Position numbers and translations under genes: made by a program. A stretch of DNA of 64,000 nucleotides from a virus: positions 36,828 through 100,827 of the IMG/VR virus record IMGVR_UViG_3300025401_000016, one strand, 5' to 3'. Below the pieces are notes generated by a model. The model ran no database searches and was not told the DNA's origin. It saw nothing but the letters and a program-made list of their open reading frames with translations. This document shows positions 45,292-50,872 of this stretch, one piece after another (positions within the stretch are counted from its first letter, which is position 1; each line of letters opens with the position of its first letter).

Positions 45292-45299
45292 TATAAATA
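45292..45299 (+). promoter_or_regulatory. Late promoter TATAAATA (perfect)
   Basis: Six nt before the ATG of a 20-residue ORF at 45306. Confidence 0.75.
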
Positions 45300-45305
45300 C
45301 TAACT

Positions 45306-45368
45306 ATGAATAAGCCAGTAAGTAACGCACCATCGTTAGTAAAGAATCCGTATACAAAAACAAACTAA
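45306..45368 (+). pseudogene. Relic of a terminase large-subunit 5' end (20 aa)
   Basis: The ORF reads M-N-K-P-V-S-N-A-P-S-L-V-K-N-P-Y-T-K-T-N and stops. The part L-V-K-N-P-Y-T-K-T aligns with L-V-K-S-P-Y-K-K-T at residues 7-15 of the intact terminase that starts at 46068. Both begin 5-6 nt after a perfect TATAAATA. I infer that the gene at 45376 was inserted after the terminase start, leaving this relic and a rebuilt 5' end. It may still be translated. Confidence 0.6.
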
Positions 45369-45371
45369 ATA
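45364..45371 (+). promoter_or_regulatory. Late promoter ACTAAATA
   Basis: Six of eight bases match; the motif contains the TAA stop of the 20-residue ORF and is 4 nt from the ATG at 45376. Confidence 0.55.
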
Positions 45372-45375
45372 CATT

Positions 45376-46041
45376 ATGGCATCAAACGGAATATCAACAC
45401 TATCAACAAAGCAATTGAAACAAGTTGCTAAACTAAACTTGGCTATGCAAGATAGACAAAGAGTAGGGAACATACGCAGTGCATACGATATCACAGAATT
45501 GCCAACACAATATAATAACAACGGTATAACTGACAATCCTAATTCAAGTGGTTTGGTACAGGGTCGTCCATGGTTACCTTTACAATCAGGAATTTATCAA
45601 TATCACTATAACGGTTATTGGAATAATACTATTAGTTTTTTCACAGGAAATAGTCCCTCAGGACATCAAATTGCAACTAACTTTGAGATAGGAAGTGAAT
45701 CAACAAATCATAGTGAATTGTTTGCTGGATATTTTTTATCTGACTATACCGGTGTTTGGACATTTAGTATGACAAGTGATGATGCTAGCAACTTTTGGAT
45801 TGGTACAAATGCACGATCAGGATATACTATACCTAACGCATTAATATCTAGTACTTATAACACAGGGGCAGTAACAGGCACCGTTAATTTAGTAGCAGGT
45901 TCATATTATCCTATACTAGTTCTGTATGGAAATGGTGCGGCAGGCGGTTCATTATCATTAAGTTATAGTCATACTGGTGTATCTAACACCACTGATTACA
46001 CAGGTAAATTATTTTATAATCCAGTAACTAATGGTATTTAA
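45376..46041 (+). CDS. PA14/GLEYA-like carbohydrate-binding virion protein (221 aa)
   Basis: The N-terminal third (K-Q-L-K-Q-V-A-K-L-N-L-A, then Y-D-I-T-E-L-P-T-Q-Y-N and G-L-V-Q-G-R-P-W) is a head piece that I remember from cyanophage proteins. The C-terminal half has F-A-G-Y-F-L-S-D-Y-T-G-V-W-T-F, then T-S-D-D-A-S-N-F-W-I-G and Y-Y-P-I-L-V-L-Y-G-N, matching PA14/GLEYA adhesin domains that bind sugars through a calcium-linked D-D pair. It lies between a terminase relic and the terminase. Probably a host-glycan-binding fibre component. Confidence 0.75.
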   Translation: MASNGISTLSTKQLKQVAKLNLAMQDRQRVGNIRSAYDITELPTQYNNNGITDNPNSSGLVQGRPWLPLQSGIYQYHYNGYWNNTISFFTGNSPSGHQIATNFEIGSESTNHSELFAGYFLSDYTGVWTFSMTSDDASNFWIGTNARSGYTIPNALISSTYNTGAVTGTVNLVAGSYYPILVLYGNGAAGGSLSLSYSHTGVSNTTDYTGKLFYNPVTNGI

Positions 46042-46054
46042 TCTTTAGCATAGT

Positions 46055-46062
46055 TATAAATA
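46055..46062 (+). promoter_or_regulatory. Late promoter TATAAATA (perfect) of the terminase
   Basis: Five nt before the ATG at 46068; no ribosome binding site. Confidence 0.78.
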
Positions 46063-46067
46063 ATGCT

Positions 46068-46985
46068 ATGAATGATACATCTACTTTAGTCAAATCACCC
46101 TACAAGAAAACAAAGTTCAAAGATTCAAAACAATTAGACGACTTTGTTAAATGTTGTGATCCGGATACAGGTTATCTATATTTCATGGATAACTTCTTTT
46201 ATATCCAACATCCAACAAGGGGTGCTATTCAGTACCATCCATGGGACTTTCAACAAAAACTAATTGATACATATCACAATTATAGATTTAGTATTAACTT
46301 GATGGCTCGACAAACTGGTAAGTCAACTTCAGCAGCAGGTTACTTACTTTGGTATGCTATGTTCATACCAGATGCAACAATTCTTATCGCTGCACACAAA
46401 TATGACGGTGCACAAGAGATTATGCAACGTATTCGTTATGCATATGAGAATTGTCCTGATCACATTAAAGCAGGAGCAACTGACTATAATAAAGGTAATT
46501 TAGGTTTTGACAATGGTAGTCGTATTATATCAGCGACTACAACTGAAAATACAGGTCGTGGTCTATCTATATCATTACTATATTTGGATGAGTTTGCATT
46601 CGTAAGACCTACTATAGCAAAAGAGTTTTGGACATCAATTACACCCACACTATCAACTGGTGGTAAAGCAATTATTACAAGCACTCCCAACTCTGATGAA
46701 GATCAATTTGCTTTCTTATGGAAACAAGCAAACAAGTGTGAAGATGAATTTGGTAACACAACAGATTTAGGTGTAAACGGGTTCAAAGCATATAAAGCAA
46801 CTTGGGAAGCACACCCTGAAAGAGATCAAAAGTGGGCTGATGAAATGATAGCACAACTCGGGGAAGATAGATTCCGCCGAGAAATGAATTGCATAACAGG
46901 TGATTCTAATGTCACTATAAAATTACCCAATGGAAAAATTAAAAAAATATCAATAGATGAACTTTCTAAGTTACTAAGTTCATAA
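46068..46985 (+). CDS. Terminase large subunit, ATPase exon fused to split-intein N-half (gp17-N)
   Basis: Residues 1-274 are the ATPase part of a T4-like gp17: Walker A A-R-Q-T-G-K-S-T (80-87), Walker B L-L-Y-L-D-E (170-175), coupling motif I-T-S-T-P-N-S (about 205-211). The native sequence stops at R-R-E-M-N (274). From Cys275 to the stop, 31 residues beginning C-I-T-G-D-S form intein block A, so the extein continues in the gene at 47755. The gene is therefore one half of a fractured terminase. DNA packaging requires protein splicing to join both parts. Short N-halves of this kind are known from the AceL-TerL split intein, also in TerL. Confidence 0.93.
   Translation: MNDTSTLVKSPYKKTKFKDSKQLDDFVKCCDPDTGYLYFMDNFFYIQHPTRGAIQYHPWDFQQKLIDTYHNYRFSINLMARQTGKSTSAAGYLLWYAMFIPDATILIAAHKYDGAQEIMQRIRYAYENCPDHIKAGATDYNKGNLGFDNGSRIISATTTENTGRGLSISLLYLDEFAFVRPTIAKEFWTSITPTLSTGGKAIITSTPNSDEDQFAFLWKQANKCEDEFGNTTDLGVNGFKAYKATWEAHPERDQKWADEMIAQLGEDRFRREMNCITGDSNVTIKLPNGKIKKISIDELSKLLSS
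46890..46982 (+). other. Split intein N-fragment (31 aa)
   Basis: Cys275 is the catalytic first residue, followed by I-T-G-D-S-N-V (block A), then G-K-I-K-K-I and a short helix. The fragment stops before block B, which lies in the downstream gene, so the break is between blocks A and B. Confidence 0.88.
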
Positions 46986-47000
46986 TTTATGACGAAACGG

Positions 47001-47008
47001 TATAAATA
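47001..47008 (+). promoter_or_regulatory. Late promoter TATAAATA (perfect) for the HNH gene
   Basis: Four nt before the ATG at 47013. It allows the endonuclease to be made independently of the terminase exon. Confidence 0.65.
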
Positions 47009-47012
47009 CACT

Positions 47013-47777
47013 ATGATAAAAAATAAATATTACCACTGGTATCATTCTATTATTGATAGTGCTAAAACATCAAATAGAGTAAAAAATAACCAAACTTATT
47101 TTGAGTATCATCATGTAATTCCTAAATCTTTAGGCGGAGATGACTCACCGTCTAATTTGGTTTTGCTTACATGCAAAGAACATTATACATGTCACCATTT
47201 ATTAACAAGATTTACAGTTAGCGGAGATAAAGCAAAAATGATATATGCTTTTTGGGGTCTCGCTAATCAATGGAGCAAATATAGGGATAACGTTAGGATA
47301 ACGAATCGTACATACTCTTTACTAAAAGAAAATATTAGTAAACAACTTTCAATAGATAGACTAGGAAGTAGTAATCCTATGTATGGTAAAGATGCACCCA
47401 ATAAAGGTATAAAGCGTCCCGGAGTGGGTGGAAGAAAACCGGGATTTGTTTGGTCAGATGAAGAAAGAGAAAAACATTTAAAAGCAAGATCCTCTGAGGG
47501 ATATTACGATTATCTCAGAGATCCTGAAAGATGTAGGAAAATTAGTAATTCTCAAAAAGGAAAAATAGGCAATGCTACTGGAAAAATCTGGTTTAACAAT
47601 GGCATTAAAGAACTCTATTCTAATGAATGCCCTGAAGGATTTATTCAGGGCAGGTTACCTAAAGATCAGATATCAAAACGAGGAATGAAATGGTACAATA
47701 ACGGTACCATTAATAAACAGTTCAAAGATGATAATATTTTAGAAGGATTTGTAAGTGGAAGACTTAGTAAAAAATAA
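47013..47777 (+). CDS. HNH homing endonuclease inside the fractured terminase (254 aa)
   Basis: I start at ATG 47013, 4 nt after a perfect late motif; an ATG at 46989 would add eight residues. The nuclease motif is E-Y-H-H-V-I-P-K-S-L-G-G (His33/34), S-N-L-V (Asn48) and H-Y-T-C-H-H (57-62). Downstream are NUMOD-like DNA-binding repeats: S-N-P-M-Y-G-K, and two copies of W-(F/Y)-N-N-G ending in E-G-F-(I/V)-x-G-R. It is a free-standing gene placed exactly between the intein halves and overlaps the second terminase exon by 23 nt. It could spread the whole cassette into intein-less terminase genes (inference). Confidence 0.9.
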   Translation: MIKNKYYHWYHSIIDSAKTSNRVKNNQTYFEYHHVIPKSLGGDDSPSNLVLLTCKEHYTCHHLLTRFTVSGDKAKMIYAFWGLANQWSKYRDNVRITNRTYSLLKENISKQLSIDRLGSSNPMYGKDAPNKGIKRPGVGGRKPGFVWSDEEREKHLKARSSEGYYDYLRDPERCRKISNSQKGKIGNATGKIWFNNGIKELYSNECPEGFIQGRLPKDQISKRGMKWYNNGTINKQFKDDNILEGFVSGRLSKK

Positions 47778-48087
47778 TAAAGGTATACAAATCTTAACTG
47801 ATTCGGGTTGGAGTGATTTTGCCGGCGTGCTTGCCAAGGGTAAAAAAGAAACGGTATTGATACAAACAACCACTAAAAAAATTACATGCACATTAGATCA
47901 TGATTTTTTTAATGTAAATTTAAAAAAGATTCCTGCAAAGAAATTAAAACCGGGAATTAAAATTAAAGATAATACAGGTGTAGATACAGTAGTAAGCATA
48001 TCACTAAAAAAAGTTGAACAAGTGTATGATTTATTAAATGTTGAAAAAAATCATAGATTTTATGCGAATGACTTACTGATATCCAAC
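47755..48087 (+). other. Split intein C-fragment (111 aa)
   Basis: The fragment has blocks B, F and G. The penultimate residue before Asn111 is Ser rather than His, and the +1 extein residue is Cys112. With the 31-residue N-part the reassembled intein is about 142 residues, a mini-intein without internal endonuclease. Confidence 0.88.
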
Positions 48088-48813
48088 TGTGAATTTATTA
48101 TTGCTGATGAGACTCTTATTAATCCAAATACATTGATTGCATTAGAAGGTATTGAACCCACACTACGTCAAGGGCAAATACGTTGGTATAAAACACCAAC
48201 TAAAGGTAATATATATGCTGTTGGTTTAGATCCTAGTCTTGGTACAGGTGGTGATCCAGCTGGCATACAAATTTTTGAAGCAAATACAACTACACAAATT
48301 GGTGAATGGAAACACAATAAAACTGATATACCAAATCAGATTAAATTATTAGCACAAATTAACAAGTATATTGTTGAATGTACAAATGAACCAAATAGTT
48401 TATACTATAGCATAGAAAATAATAGTATAGGTGAAGCTGCACTAGTATCATTAAATGAATACGGGGAATCAAATATCCCTGGCATTTTCATCAGCGAATC
48501 TGGTAAAAAACGTAAAGGTTTCAATACTACACAAAAATCTAAATTGGCTGCTTGTGCTAAATTCAAATCACTATTAGAAAGTAAAAAATTAACTGTGCAT
48601 AGTCGCAGTTTAATCAGTGAATTAAAGACATTTGTTGCACATGGTGGTAGTTATGCCGCTAAAACGGGTGAAACAGATGATTTGGTCATGTCTTCATTAC
48701 TAATTGTAAGAATGATTCAACAAATAGGGGAATACAATAGTGATTTAGATAGTCATATGAGGGATCATAGTGAGATAATTGCTCCCCTGCCCTTCTTTGC
48801 AGTTTTTGCATAA
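47755..48813 (+). CDS. Split-intein C-half fused to terminase nuclease exon (gp17-C)
   Basis: GTG at 47755 is chosen because AGAAGGA lies 7 nt upstream inside the HNH gene. Residues 1-111 are the intein C-part with block B T-x-x-H (T-L-D-H, about 46-49), block F Y-D-L-L-N-V-E-K-N-H-R-F-Y-A-N-D and the end L-L-I-S-N before Cys112. The usual penultimate His is Ser. Residues 112-352 are the terminase nuclease domain: D159 in G-L-D-P-S-L, E221 in S-I-E-N-N, and D308/D309 in G-E-T-D-D-L-V. Splicing would give C-E-F-I-I-A-D-E-T-L after R-R-E-M-N and a protein of about 515 residues. Both exons are needed for headful packaging. Confidence 0.93.
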   Translation: MEDLVKNNKGIQILTDSGWSDFAGVLAKGKKETVLIQTTTKKITCTLDHDFFNVNLKKIPAKKLKPGIKIKDNTGVDTVVSISLKKVEQVYDLLNVEKNHRFYANDLLISNCEFIIADETLINPNTLIALEGIEPTLRQGQIRWYKTPTKGNIYAVGLDPSLGTGGDPAGIQIFEANTTTQIGEWKHNKTDIPNQIKLLAQINKYIVECTNEPNSLYYSIENNSIGEAALVSLNEYGESNIPGIFISESGKKRKGFNTTQKSKLAACAKFKSLLESKKLTVHSRSLISELKTFVAHGGSYAAKTGETDDLVMSSLLIVRMIQQIGEYNSDLDSHMRDHSEIIAPLPFFAVFA

Positions 48814-48816
48814 ATA
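48809..48816 (+). promoter_or_regulatory. Late promoter CATAAATA overlapping terminase stop
   Basis: The TAA stop of the terminase exon (48811-48813) lies in the motif; 7 nt separate it from the ATG at 48824. It decides that start over an upstream in-frame start at 48779. Confidence 0.65.
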
Positions 48817-48823
48817 TATTACT

Positions 48824-50872
48824 ATGTCAGCAAATCAAGATAACATTAAATCAGAAGTATACGGCTTTCTAAAAAGTCGCGGATATGACCCTAAACTATT
48901 ATCAACCTCAGGAAAAAGCGTACCTGTTGAATCTGAAGCAGAGGTAATAGGATTTACTTTTACAAAAGACGGGGTAGATTATGGAAATGCATACTGTAGT
49001 TTAGATAACTCAGATGTATTTACAATATATGAAACAGATAAAATTGCAGATAGTCCTAGTGAAGATGAATCCGATGATCTTTCTTGGAGTGATTTGATAG
49101 TTGCATTAAGACAAATGACATTTGGTAAAGTAGATAAATTTAACATAGATCGCATAGATAATTTGGAACACGACATGGCTAAAAGAGAACATACCAAAAA
49201 ACTAGATGAAAGCTATTATGCAATCAATAAAAAATCTAGTTATAGTGACAATATTCCCACTGTAAAAATACATCTTCAACATAGTCGTGCACTTGAAGAG
49301 GGTGAACAACGTTATCGCAATGTTGAAAGAATTTTCATTGAAAATACATTGGGCGAAAGATTTCTAGCTCCTACAAATAAACCCGGTTTAGCAAGAGTAT
49401 ATGCTAGACATATTGCTGAAGGTGGTAAAGTTAATGATGATCGTTGGAATCACATCAGTAGTTTATGTGAAGAATATAGTAAAATGGCAGGATTTGTTCG
49501 TGCCACTCGCAATGGACAGTTTGTTGAGTCCACACAAAAATTAGTTAATGAGGGTATAAATCACTATCAAAAACTACGTGAAACATTACATAAATTAACA
49601 GGTAAAAAAGGTTACAGTACTTATTTTGAAAGTTACACTCCTCCATTAATGGAAGACGAAGAACAAGCTGATTTAAGTGAAATGTTTATGAGTAGTAGCT
49701 TAGACCCACGTATTGAGTGTGTAATGCCTATTCTAAGCAAACTCAGCAAGAATATAACTGAGGACAATATGAAAGAAATTAAATCATTAGAAGAGTGGGC
49801 AGAATCAATCGCAGAAACTCCATTAAAAGAATTTGCACCTGGCGAGAACCCCGGTGGTAATAGTGGTGATGAGTATCTAAGAGCATTAGCGAGTGCTTGG
49901 TATAACCAAGATTTAAGTGCTATTGCAGATCAAGTTAAAAAAGACAAGAATCCAAAGAAAAAGAATATGATGGATCGTGTTATTGATGCACAAGAAGCAG
50001 TAGAAAAAATCCTAAGCCGTGGGGTACATTGTCCTGACGGTAAAGTTAGAAAGTATTATATCGACTATACCGCAGATTTCGACGGCGTAGACATGGTCAG
50101 TCATGATTACTATGAACACTCTGATTATGGTCCTAATGACGAATATGTTGACGGTCGTACTGGTAAACCATGGAGCGTCTACGATCACATAGAATTTAAA
50201 GATAGTGATTTAGATGAGGGTATAAAAGAAGGTAAATATGATGACGAAGATGATGGACTCATTGCTGGTCGCTATACTCCTCAACAATGGGCTAAGATGG
50301 TAAGCAATGTAAAGAAATTAGCACATGCACAGAATGCTAAGAAAATGGCTACAGTTAGTACCAATAAACCAATTGGTACACGTGTAGCTGATATCGGACC
50401 CGGCGGCAAAGAACATAATGTTAAAACAGATGCTGAGTGGGATAAACAAAAAGGTGTGAAGGAAGGCCATGCAGACCAACAACGAAAAATCTTCAAGAAG
50501 AACGGCAAGCCAGTAGGTGAAGTTGGTATTGACCGTGAGTCAAGTCCCGGCAACGGCCAATGGTATATGAAGTGCTATGCTTACAATATAGATAATGCAG
50601 GCTACGATTCATACGAAGAAGCCGTTGAAGAACTAAAATATTGCTTAAAGCAAGGTGTGGCGGAAGAAGTAGATACTGGTGAATATGATGCACGTAAATC
50701 TACCCATAAAGGTAATCCTACTAAAGAACAAGAGAAAAGCTTCCGTGAGAAAGTAAAGCAATATGGTGACGAATTAGAACAACGTCAAAAAGAAAAAGAA
50801 CAAACTGTTAAAGAAGGTTTGAATGAAAATTCTGAGATAATTAGAATTCGTAAATTATCAGGGTTAGTATAA
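48824..50872 (+). CDS. Large modular protein of unknown function (682 aa)
   Basis: I start at ATG 48824, just after the late promoter. The N-terminal 270 residues are charged and mostly helical, with I-E-N-T-L-G-E-R-F-L-A-P. A central part contains Y-Y-I-D-Y-T-A-D-F-D-G-V and an acidic Asp/Glu stretch. Near 50470-50640 there is a compact module (K-I-F-K-K-N-G-K-P-V-G-E-V-G) with different base use. The C-terminus ends in I-R-K-L-S-G-L-V, a short motif that also occurs in the 43987 protein. Repeated V-K-E-G and V-A-E-E tags separate the parts. It follows the terminase directly; a head-interior or scaffold-like role is possible but not shown. Confidence 0.65.
   Translation: MSANQDNIKSEVYGFLKSRGYDPKLLSTSGKSVPVESEAEVIGFTFTKDGVDYGNAYCSLDNSDVFTIYETDKIADSPSEDESDDLSWSDLIVALRQMTFGKVDKFNIDRIDNLEHDMAKREHTKKLDESYYAINKKSSYSDNIPTVKIHLQHSRALEEGEQRYRNVERIFIENTLGERFLAPTNKPGLARVYARHIAEGGKVNDDRWNHISSLCEEYSKMAGFVRATRNGQFVESTQKLVNEGINHYQKLRETLHKLTGKKGYSTYFESYTPPLMEDEEQADLSEMFMSSSLDPRIECVMPILSKLSKNITEDNMKEIKSLEEWAESIAETPLKEFAPGENPGGNSGDEYLRALASAWYNQDLSAIADQVKKDKNPKKKNMMDRVIDAQEAVEKILSRGVHCPDGKVRKYYIDYTADFDGVDMVSHDYYEHSDYGPNDEYVDGRTGKPWSVYDHIEFKDSDLDEGIKEGKYDDEDDGLIAGRYTPQQWAKMVSNVKKLAHAQNAKKMATVSTNKPIGTRVADIGPGGKEHNVKTDAEWDKQKGVKEGHADQQRKIFKKNGKPVGEVGIDRESSPGNGQWYMKCYAYNIDNAGYDSYEEAVEELKYCLKQGVAEEVDTGEYDARKSTHKGNPTKEQEKSFREKVKQYGDELEQRQKEKEQTVKEGLNENSEIIRIRKLSGLV

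What the first reader, a model, noticed from the sequence alone, without database searches (positions are those of the whole stretch)
46068..48813. Fractured terminase: atypical split intein halves with an HNH gene between them
The gp17 ATPase exon ends R-R-E-M-N and continues as a 31-residue intein N-part that starts with Cys. A separate HNH gene follows. The second terminase gene opens with a 111-residue intein C-part ending S-N before Cys-E-F-I-I. The junctions restore an ordinary gp17 sequence. The break lies between intein blocks A and B, giving a very short N-part as in the AceL-TerL split intein, and the whole resembles the fractured-gene arrangement described for phage split inteins. 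Here the endonuclease is an HNH/NUMOD type with its own perfect late promoter, and the usual penultimate His is Ser. Packaging would depend on trans-splicing.
Basis: partly seen in the sequence, partly recalled or inferred. Interest (0 to 1): 0.93.

Follow-up and report, generated by a model that had tools for sequence, protein, structure and literature searches.

The report
Split-intein phage terminase with nuclease gene
The DNA-packaging motor gene of this phage is broken in two by a mobile element whose halves should stitch the protein back together while a DNA-cutting gene rides between them; about 60 relatives show the same break with interchangeable cutters, and in three lineages the two halves have been rejoined.

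Summary
The TerL (gp17) gene is cut after residue 274 by a 31-aa intein N-part (46890-46982) and a 111-aa C-part (47755-48087), with an HNH gene between them. The joined 515-aa product is 78-86% identical to uninterrupted TerLs. The nearest solved inteins are VidaL and Cat, both atypically split. A family of 61 loci keeps Cys1, TxxH, Asn and Cys+1 without exception. Its penultimate residue is Ser (44) or Lys (16) and His only once, so the Ser is a family trait. Intein and HNH are far less diverged at synonymous sites than the exteins (p=3e-13) and are under purifying selection, which points to recent horizontal movement of a working element.

Beyond the finding: the endonuclease in the gap has been exchanged repeatedly (two HNH types, GIY-YIG, DUF7487). 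Its C-terminal tail overlaps the start of the C-part. Three contiguous relatives lie nested among split ones and are not one clade. Two of them carry the endonuclease's last codons out of frame, plus the old ribosome-binding site and GTG, so endonuclease loss re-fused the intein.

The architecture itself is known ('fractured genes'; AceL/GOS-TerL). The exchange and re-fusion appear new. Trans-splicing and homing were not tested.

The parts
46055..46062 (+). TATAAATA, late-promoter-like, 5 nt before the TerL ATG
   Evidence: sequence match only
46068..46889 (+). TerL (gp17) N-extein, residues 1-274, ATPase part
   Evidence: Pfam Terminase_6N 1.5e-15; T4 gp17 3ezk 1e-47 for the spliced product
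46890..46982 (+). intein N-part, 31 aa, Cys1 (block A and N2), followed by TAA 46983-46985
   Evidence: Cys1 in 51 of 51 relatives; dN/dS 0.14 against L083
47001..47008 (+). TATAAATA, late-promoter-like, before the HNH start ATG 47013
   Evidence: octamer not exact in L083
47013..47777 (+). HNH homing-endonuclease-like gene (longer ORF starts at 46989); two C-terminal W(F/Y)NNG..GF..GR repeats
   Evidence: Pfam HNH 25 bits, cut-off 21.4; PHROG 655 7.6e-35; dN/dS 0.08
47742..47747 (+). ribosome-binding site GAAGGA for the C gene, inside the HNH reading frame
   Evidence: conserved ahead of the C-part start in most of 37 split loci
47755..47777 (+). overlap: last codons of HNH (SGRLSKK*) and first codons of the C-part (VEDLVKNN)
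   Evidence: same overlap in HNH and GIY-YIG relatives
47755..48087 (+). intein C-part, 111 aa, GTG start; TLDH (block B), VYDL (block F), ends ISN
   Evidence: Pfam Intein_splicing 9.4e-5, below the curated cut-off; VidaL 8e-12 and Cat 4e-11 with the family profile
48088..48810 (+). TerL C-extein, 241 aa, starting at native Cys+1 (CEFIIADE); stop 48811-48813
   Evidence: Pfam Terminase_6C 1.3e-6; +1 Cys in 78 of 80 uninterrupted homologues

Best explanation
A mobile, naturally and atypically split class-1 intein in the phage terminase large subunit. The two gene products meet through the 31-aa and 111-aa intein parts, fold into one Hint domain and splice in trans to make a 515-residue TerL. 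The HNH protein between them is the homing endonuclease: it should cut intein-less terL alleles at the REM/IN|CEF site so that repair copies N-part, HNH gene and C-part together. C-gene translation starts from GAAGGA-GTG inside the HNH tail. In this family the nuclease in the gap is exchangeable, and when it is lost the halves can fuse into a contiguous mini-intein. Shown: anatomy, homology, site, conservation, horizontal signature, exchange of nuclease types, fossils in fused copies. Inferred: trans-splicing, cutting, homing.
For: Exact reading frames and junction. The spliced product matches 80 uninterrupted TerLs and T4 gp17 with no indel at the junction. 61 loci have Asn 61/61, Cys+1 61/61, TxxH 61/61, Cys1 51/51. 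Best solved relatives are the atypically split VidaL and Cat. The AF2 model of contiguous relative L126 has pLDDT 94.5 and its best fold match is VidaL, TM 0.84. dN/dS is 0.14 (IN), 0.16 (IC), 0.08 (HNH); dS is 0.10-0.39 in the element versus 0.84-1.67 in the exteins, Fisher p=3e-13. All full-length HNH kin found in IMG/VR lie in the same TerL gap. Conserved GTG/ATG with GAAGGA in 37 loci. Nuclease exchange: AU test rejects one origin for GIY-YIG (5e-13) and DUF7487 (3e-8). Fused copies L126 and L167 keep EGFHRGRISKK* / EGFVRGRILKK* out of frame; the motif was found nowhere but at C-part starts in 3.2 million scanned codons.
Against: No splicing or cutting measured. The penultimate His, common in inteins, is absent. 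The window protein's Pfam Intein_splicing score (22.7) is below the curated cut-off (35.8). The HNH model is of moderate confidence (pTM 0.41).
Confidence: 0.92

Rival explanations
1. The intein is dead and terminase works as two separate chains (ATPase and nuclease), as in the gene-in-pieces ribonucleotide reductase cited in PMC10448857.
For: No biochemical proof of splicing; penultimate His absent from nearly the whole family.
Against: Catalytic residues kept without exception in 61 loci; low dN/dS in both intein parts; contiguous relatives read through as one ORF, where only splicing could give a clean TerL; Hint-fold model.
Confidence: 0.05
2. An intact contiguous intein broken by frameshift or assembly error, with the HNH as its ordinary nested domain.
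For: Contiguous relatives exist (L126, L141, L167); the N gene and HNH share a reading frame, separated by one stop plus 3 nt.
Against: Stop, HNH and C-part start are preserved in L082 (about 98-99% DNA identity) and L083 (about 81%), and the split form in 48 of 51 loci with both halves; HNH and C-part overlap in different frames; own start codon and ribosome-binding site.
Confidence: 0.02
3. The HNH gene is a passing free-standing endonuclease that happened to insert in an already split intein and plays no part in its spread.
For: Nuclease types change often; L151, L155 and L097 are split with no intact nuclease.
Against: HNH full-length kin only found in this gap; dS of HNH and intein both lower than exteins; overlapping frames tie HNH to the C-part.
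Confidence: 0.15
4. Contiguous inteins are ancestral and were split many times by nuclease insertion at the same point.
For: Three contiguous copies at separate places in the tree.
Against: Outgroup L097 is split; L126 and L167 hold the nuclease tail codons, ribosome-binding site and GTG as vestiges; L141 differs from split sister L150 by an apparent deletion between ACAATA repeats.
Confidence: 0.08

Closest known systems
Fractured genes with split inteins (Dassa et al. 2009, NAR 37:2560; paper not held here, from memory and from citations in PMC6892783)
   Same: Conserved phage gene broken by a split intein with a free-standing endonuclease gene between the halves
   Different: Here in TerL, with an HNH gene overlapping the C-part start; several nuclease types exchanged in the same gap; re-fused copies with fossils
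AceL-TerL, GOS-TerL and consensus Cat-TerL split inteins (PMC11766414; PDB 6dsl)
   Same: TerL, very short N-part (25-37 aa; here 31) and long C-part (104-115; here 111), Cys+1 and Glu+2
   Different: Penultimate Ser (or Lys in relatives) instead of the His seen in Cat; different, though homologous, sequence
VidaL intein (PDB 6vgv)
   Same: Best sequence-profile and best fold match
   Different: About 21% identity to the modelled relative L126
PolB split intein with HNH gene in Pseudomonas jumbo phage MIJ3 (PMC6892783)
   Same: HNH endonuclease gene between split-intein halves
   Different: Other host gene (PolB), Ser in block A and His penultimate (VHNS); not shown to be split near the N-end

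Membership tests
Class-1 intein (Hint) | Cys or Ser at position 1 | tested here: met
   Cys1 in window and 51/51
Class-1 intein (Hint) | Block B TxxH | tested here: met
   TLDH; 61/61
Class-1 intein (Hint) | Terminal Asn and nucleophile at +1 | tested here: met
   N|C, 61/61
Class-1 intein (Hint) | Penultimate His (usual, not defining; several active inteins lack it, PMC7664689) | tested here: not met
   Ser in window; S 44, K 16, H 1
Class-1 intein (Hint) | Hint fold | tested here: met
   on contiguous relative L126 only: pLDDT 94.5, VidaL TM 0.84
Class-1 intein (Hint) | Protein splicing activity | not testable with these tools
   needs expression
Atypical TerL split inteins (AceL/GOS/Cat/VidaL type) | Natural split between blocks A and B with N-part of about 25-37 aa | tested here: met
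   31 + 111 aa; lengths in PMC11766414
Atypical TerL split inteins (AceL/GOS/Cat/VidaL type) | Sequence kinship | tested here: met
   VidaL 7.9e-12, Cat 4.2e-11
Atypical TerL split inteins (AceL/GOS/Cat/VidaL type) | Same TerL insertion site as AceL-TerL | tested here: inconclusive
   Cat construct has Cys-Glu at +1/+2 like CEF here; full AceL locus not available
Fractured gene with split intein | Two gene halves, each with an intein part, flanking a free-standing endonuclease gene | tested here: met
HNH homing endonuclease | HNH domain | tested here: met
   Pfam HNH 25.0 bits, cut-off 21.4
HNH homing endonuclease | Present in interrupted, absent from uninterrupted alleles, with horizontal signature | tested here: met
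HNH homing endonuclease | Cuts the empty allele and drives homing | not testable with these tools
   needs assay

The most novel reading that the evidence does not exclude
One TerL split intein acts as a docking place for interchangeable homing endonucleases: the catalytic domain (two HNH types, GIY-YIG) is swapped while the DNA-binding tail stays, because its last codons overlap the C-part start; DUF7487 enzymes replace the whole gene. Loss of the enzyme re-fuses the halves, so contiguous mini-inteins can descend from split ones, with an out-of-frame endonuclease tail as the fossil.
Probability: 0.75. Interest if true: 0.72.

Novelty: new variant of a known kind. Interest (0 to 1): 0.62.

Why it matters
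Fractured genes have been proposed as a step in which endonuclease insertion makes split inteins. This family gives about 50 two-halved members at one site, with enzyme exchange, decay, loss and return to a contiguous intein, so the direction of change can be read from sequence. It also offers a large set of natural short-N-part inteins without the penultimate His, useful for protein labelling and for testing which residues replace it.

Tried and rejected
Enrichment of TATAAATA in the window: not enriched, so only the motif plus CTATG context supports a promoter. GTDB genomes: no relative of the C-part found, so no host inferred. Second intein of this kind in the 100-kb contig: none. Dassa 2009 text: not held, so that comparison rests on memory and citations. 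Literature on phage terminase trans-splicing: none in the held library under those terms. HNH fold model too weak (pTM 0.41) for a fold search. The first HNH relatives query failed on a wrong frame and was repeated.

Full report
What is there. The window is the 3' 64 kb of a 100,827-base viral contig from IMG/VR. At 46068-48813 the terminase large subunit (T4 gp17 type) is encoded by two genes. The first runs 46068-46985: 274 residues of TerL ending RREMN, then CITGDSNVTIKLPNGKIKKISIDELSKLLSS and TAA. The last runs from GTG 47755 to 48813: 111 residues ending YANDLLISN, then CEFIIADE and the nuclease half of TerL. Between them is an HNH gene ending at 47777, so it overlaps the C gene by 23 nt. 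Joining 1-274 to the C-extein gives 515 residues that match uninterrupted IMG/VR homologues from end to end (best 80 at 78-86% identity) and T4 gp17 without an indel at the junction (3ezk, E 1e-47). 78 of 80 uninterrupted homologues already have Cys at +1.

Is it an intein. The C-part hits Pfam Intein_splicing only below the curated cut-off. A profile of 15 relatives finds the atypically split inteins VidaL (7.9e-12) and Cat (4.2e-11) first among all PDB chains. A contiguous relative at the same site (L126, 143 aa) is predicted at pLDDT 94.5 with a Hint fold whose best match is VidaL, TM 0.84. Across 61 loci the catalytic residues are constant: Cys1 51/51, TxxH 61/61, terminal Asn 61/61, Cys+1 61/61. 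The penultimate residue is Ser in 44, Lys in 16 and His in one. Inteins without that His can be active through compensating changes (PMC7664689). The Ser in the window is therefore a family trait, not decay.

Is it active and mobile. Against L083, a variant whose TerL is 82-86% identical, synonymous divergence is 0.84 and 1.67 in the two exteins but 0.10, 0.35 and 0.39 in the N-part, HNH and C-part; pooled Fisher p=3e-13. dN/dS is 0.14, 0.08 and 0.16. The element is thus younger in this pair than the gene around it and is kept by purifying selection. All full-length HNH relatives found lie in the same TerL gap. More distant hits that share only the tail are separate phage endonucleases elsewhere. 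Homing itself is inferred.

The family. A profile scan gave 73 loci. Of 51 distinct loci with both halves, 48 are split and 3 contiguous. The gap holds one of two HNH types (HNHa: window, L082-L084, L104; HNHb: 25 loci), a GIY-YIG type (7), a DUF7487 type (6; reading it as the Vsr-like family of Dassa et al. is from memory), remnants (L090, L128, L151, L155) or nothing (L097). HNHa, HNHb and GIY-YIG proteins share one C-terminal tail (KRPGxGGRKKG..., W(F/Y)NNG...EGFxxGRxxKK*), although HNH and GIY-YIG catalytic domains are unrelated. The GIY-YIG call rests mainly on the motif by eye (GYYVYAY...GTPYYIGKG) and one sub-threshold Pfam hit (L153). The tail ends inside the C-part start, which is GTG in 31 and ATG in 6 of 37 loci and is preceded by GAAGGA in most. 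The intein tree needs at least 15 changes of gap content. One origin is rejected for GIY-YIG (p 5e-13) and DUF7487 (p 3e-8).

Re-fusion. L126, L141 and L167 (L167 also seen as L169, 99.98% identical) are contiguous inteins read through in one frame into the C-extein. They are not one clade (p 4e-4). In L126 and L167 the shifted frame still reads EGFHRGRISKK* and EGFVRGRILKK*, the last residues of the endonuclease, and GAAGGA...GTG is preserved inside the intein. Over 3.2 million codons of fetched sequence the motif occurs 63 times: 41 at C-part starts of the catalogued loci and 22 in re-fetched or truncated copies of the same kind of locus, none in unrelated sequence. The tail is alike to an internal repeat of the endonuclease and to tails of free-standing phage endonucleases, so it is endonuclease DNA rather than intein DNA. 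L141 and its split sister L150 differ as expected for deletion between ACAATA repeats. The simplest reading is split first, endonuclease lost, halves fused. The outgroup L097 is split without an endonuclease.

The promoter. TATAAATA (47001-47008) lies 4 nt before ATG 47013, which relatives suggest is the true HNH start. The octamer is not enriched, but ATAAATA followed within 2-8 nt by CTATG occurs at four neighbouring genes and is not expected by chance (4 against 0.48). It is not exact in L083. If these are late promoters in the T4 manner, transcripts would begin at or next to the ATG. This is suggestive only.

Comparison with what is known. The layout is that of fractured genes (Dassa et al. 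2009; text not held). Fragment sizes agree with AceL-TerL (25+104), GOS-TerL (37+115) and Cat (30+104) (PMC11766414). An HNH gene between split-intein halves is published for PolB of phage MIJ3 (PMC6892783). A Campylobacter phage terminase interrupted by an intein and an HNH-bearing insert is published too (PMC3322345). New here, as far as the held literature shows, are the size of the TerL family at this site, the systematic loss of the penultimate His, the overlap that ties the enzyme tail to the C-part, the exchange of enzymes, and the fossils that show split-to-contiguous change.

Limits. No splicing or cutting was measured. Contigs are metagenomic. The fused copies rest on three sequences, one of them seen twice. 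The literature search covers only open papers.

Noticed in passing
Salicola phage SCTP-2, MF360958 (L188, L189, L191, L192): TerL is encoded in three distant places (about 429 kb minus, 257 kb plus, 217 kb minus); the third piece begins with an intein C-part, suggesting three-piece trans-splicing, plus a contiguous intein inside the last piece.
   Followed up: partly
Campylobacter phage PV052266 (L187, L190): TerL C gene starts with an intein C-part (SHN|CAF) while the N part lies about 26 kb away on the other strand; described in a relative as intein plus intron (PMC3322345).
   Followed up: partly
L097/L098, L099-L101, L104, L141: The same intein superfamily sits at other TerL sites: residue ~86 (Walker A) split in L097; residue ~173 split with its own endonuclease in L099, apparently contiguous in L104, split in L141.
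   Followed up: partly
window 45293-48826: ATAAATA-N2-8-CTATG before four neighbouring genes (4 against 0.48 expected), suggesting late promoters with nearly leaderless mRNAs.
   Followed up: partly
window 45376-46041: Gene before TerL carries a GLEYA/PA14 domain (Pfam 3.8e-19), a sugar-binding domain best known from yeast adhesins; possible virion adhesin.
   Followed up: no
L128:2565-2840: N-part fused in frame to the leftover endonuclease tail, an intermediate of enzyme decay.
   Followed up: no
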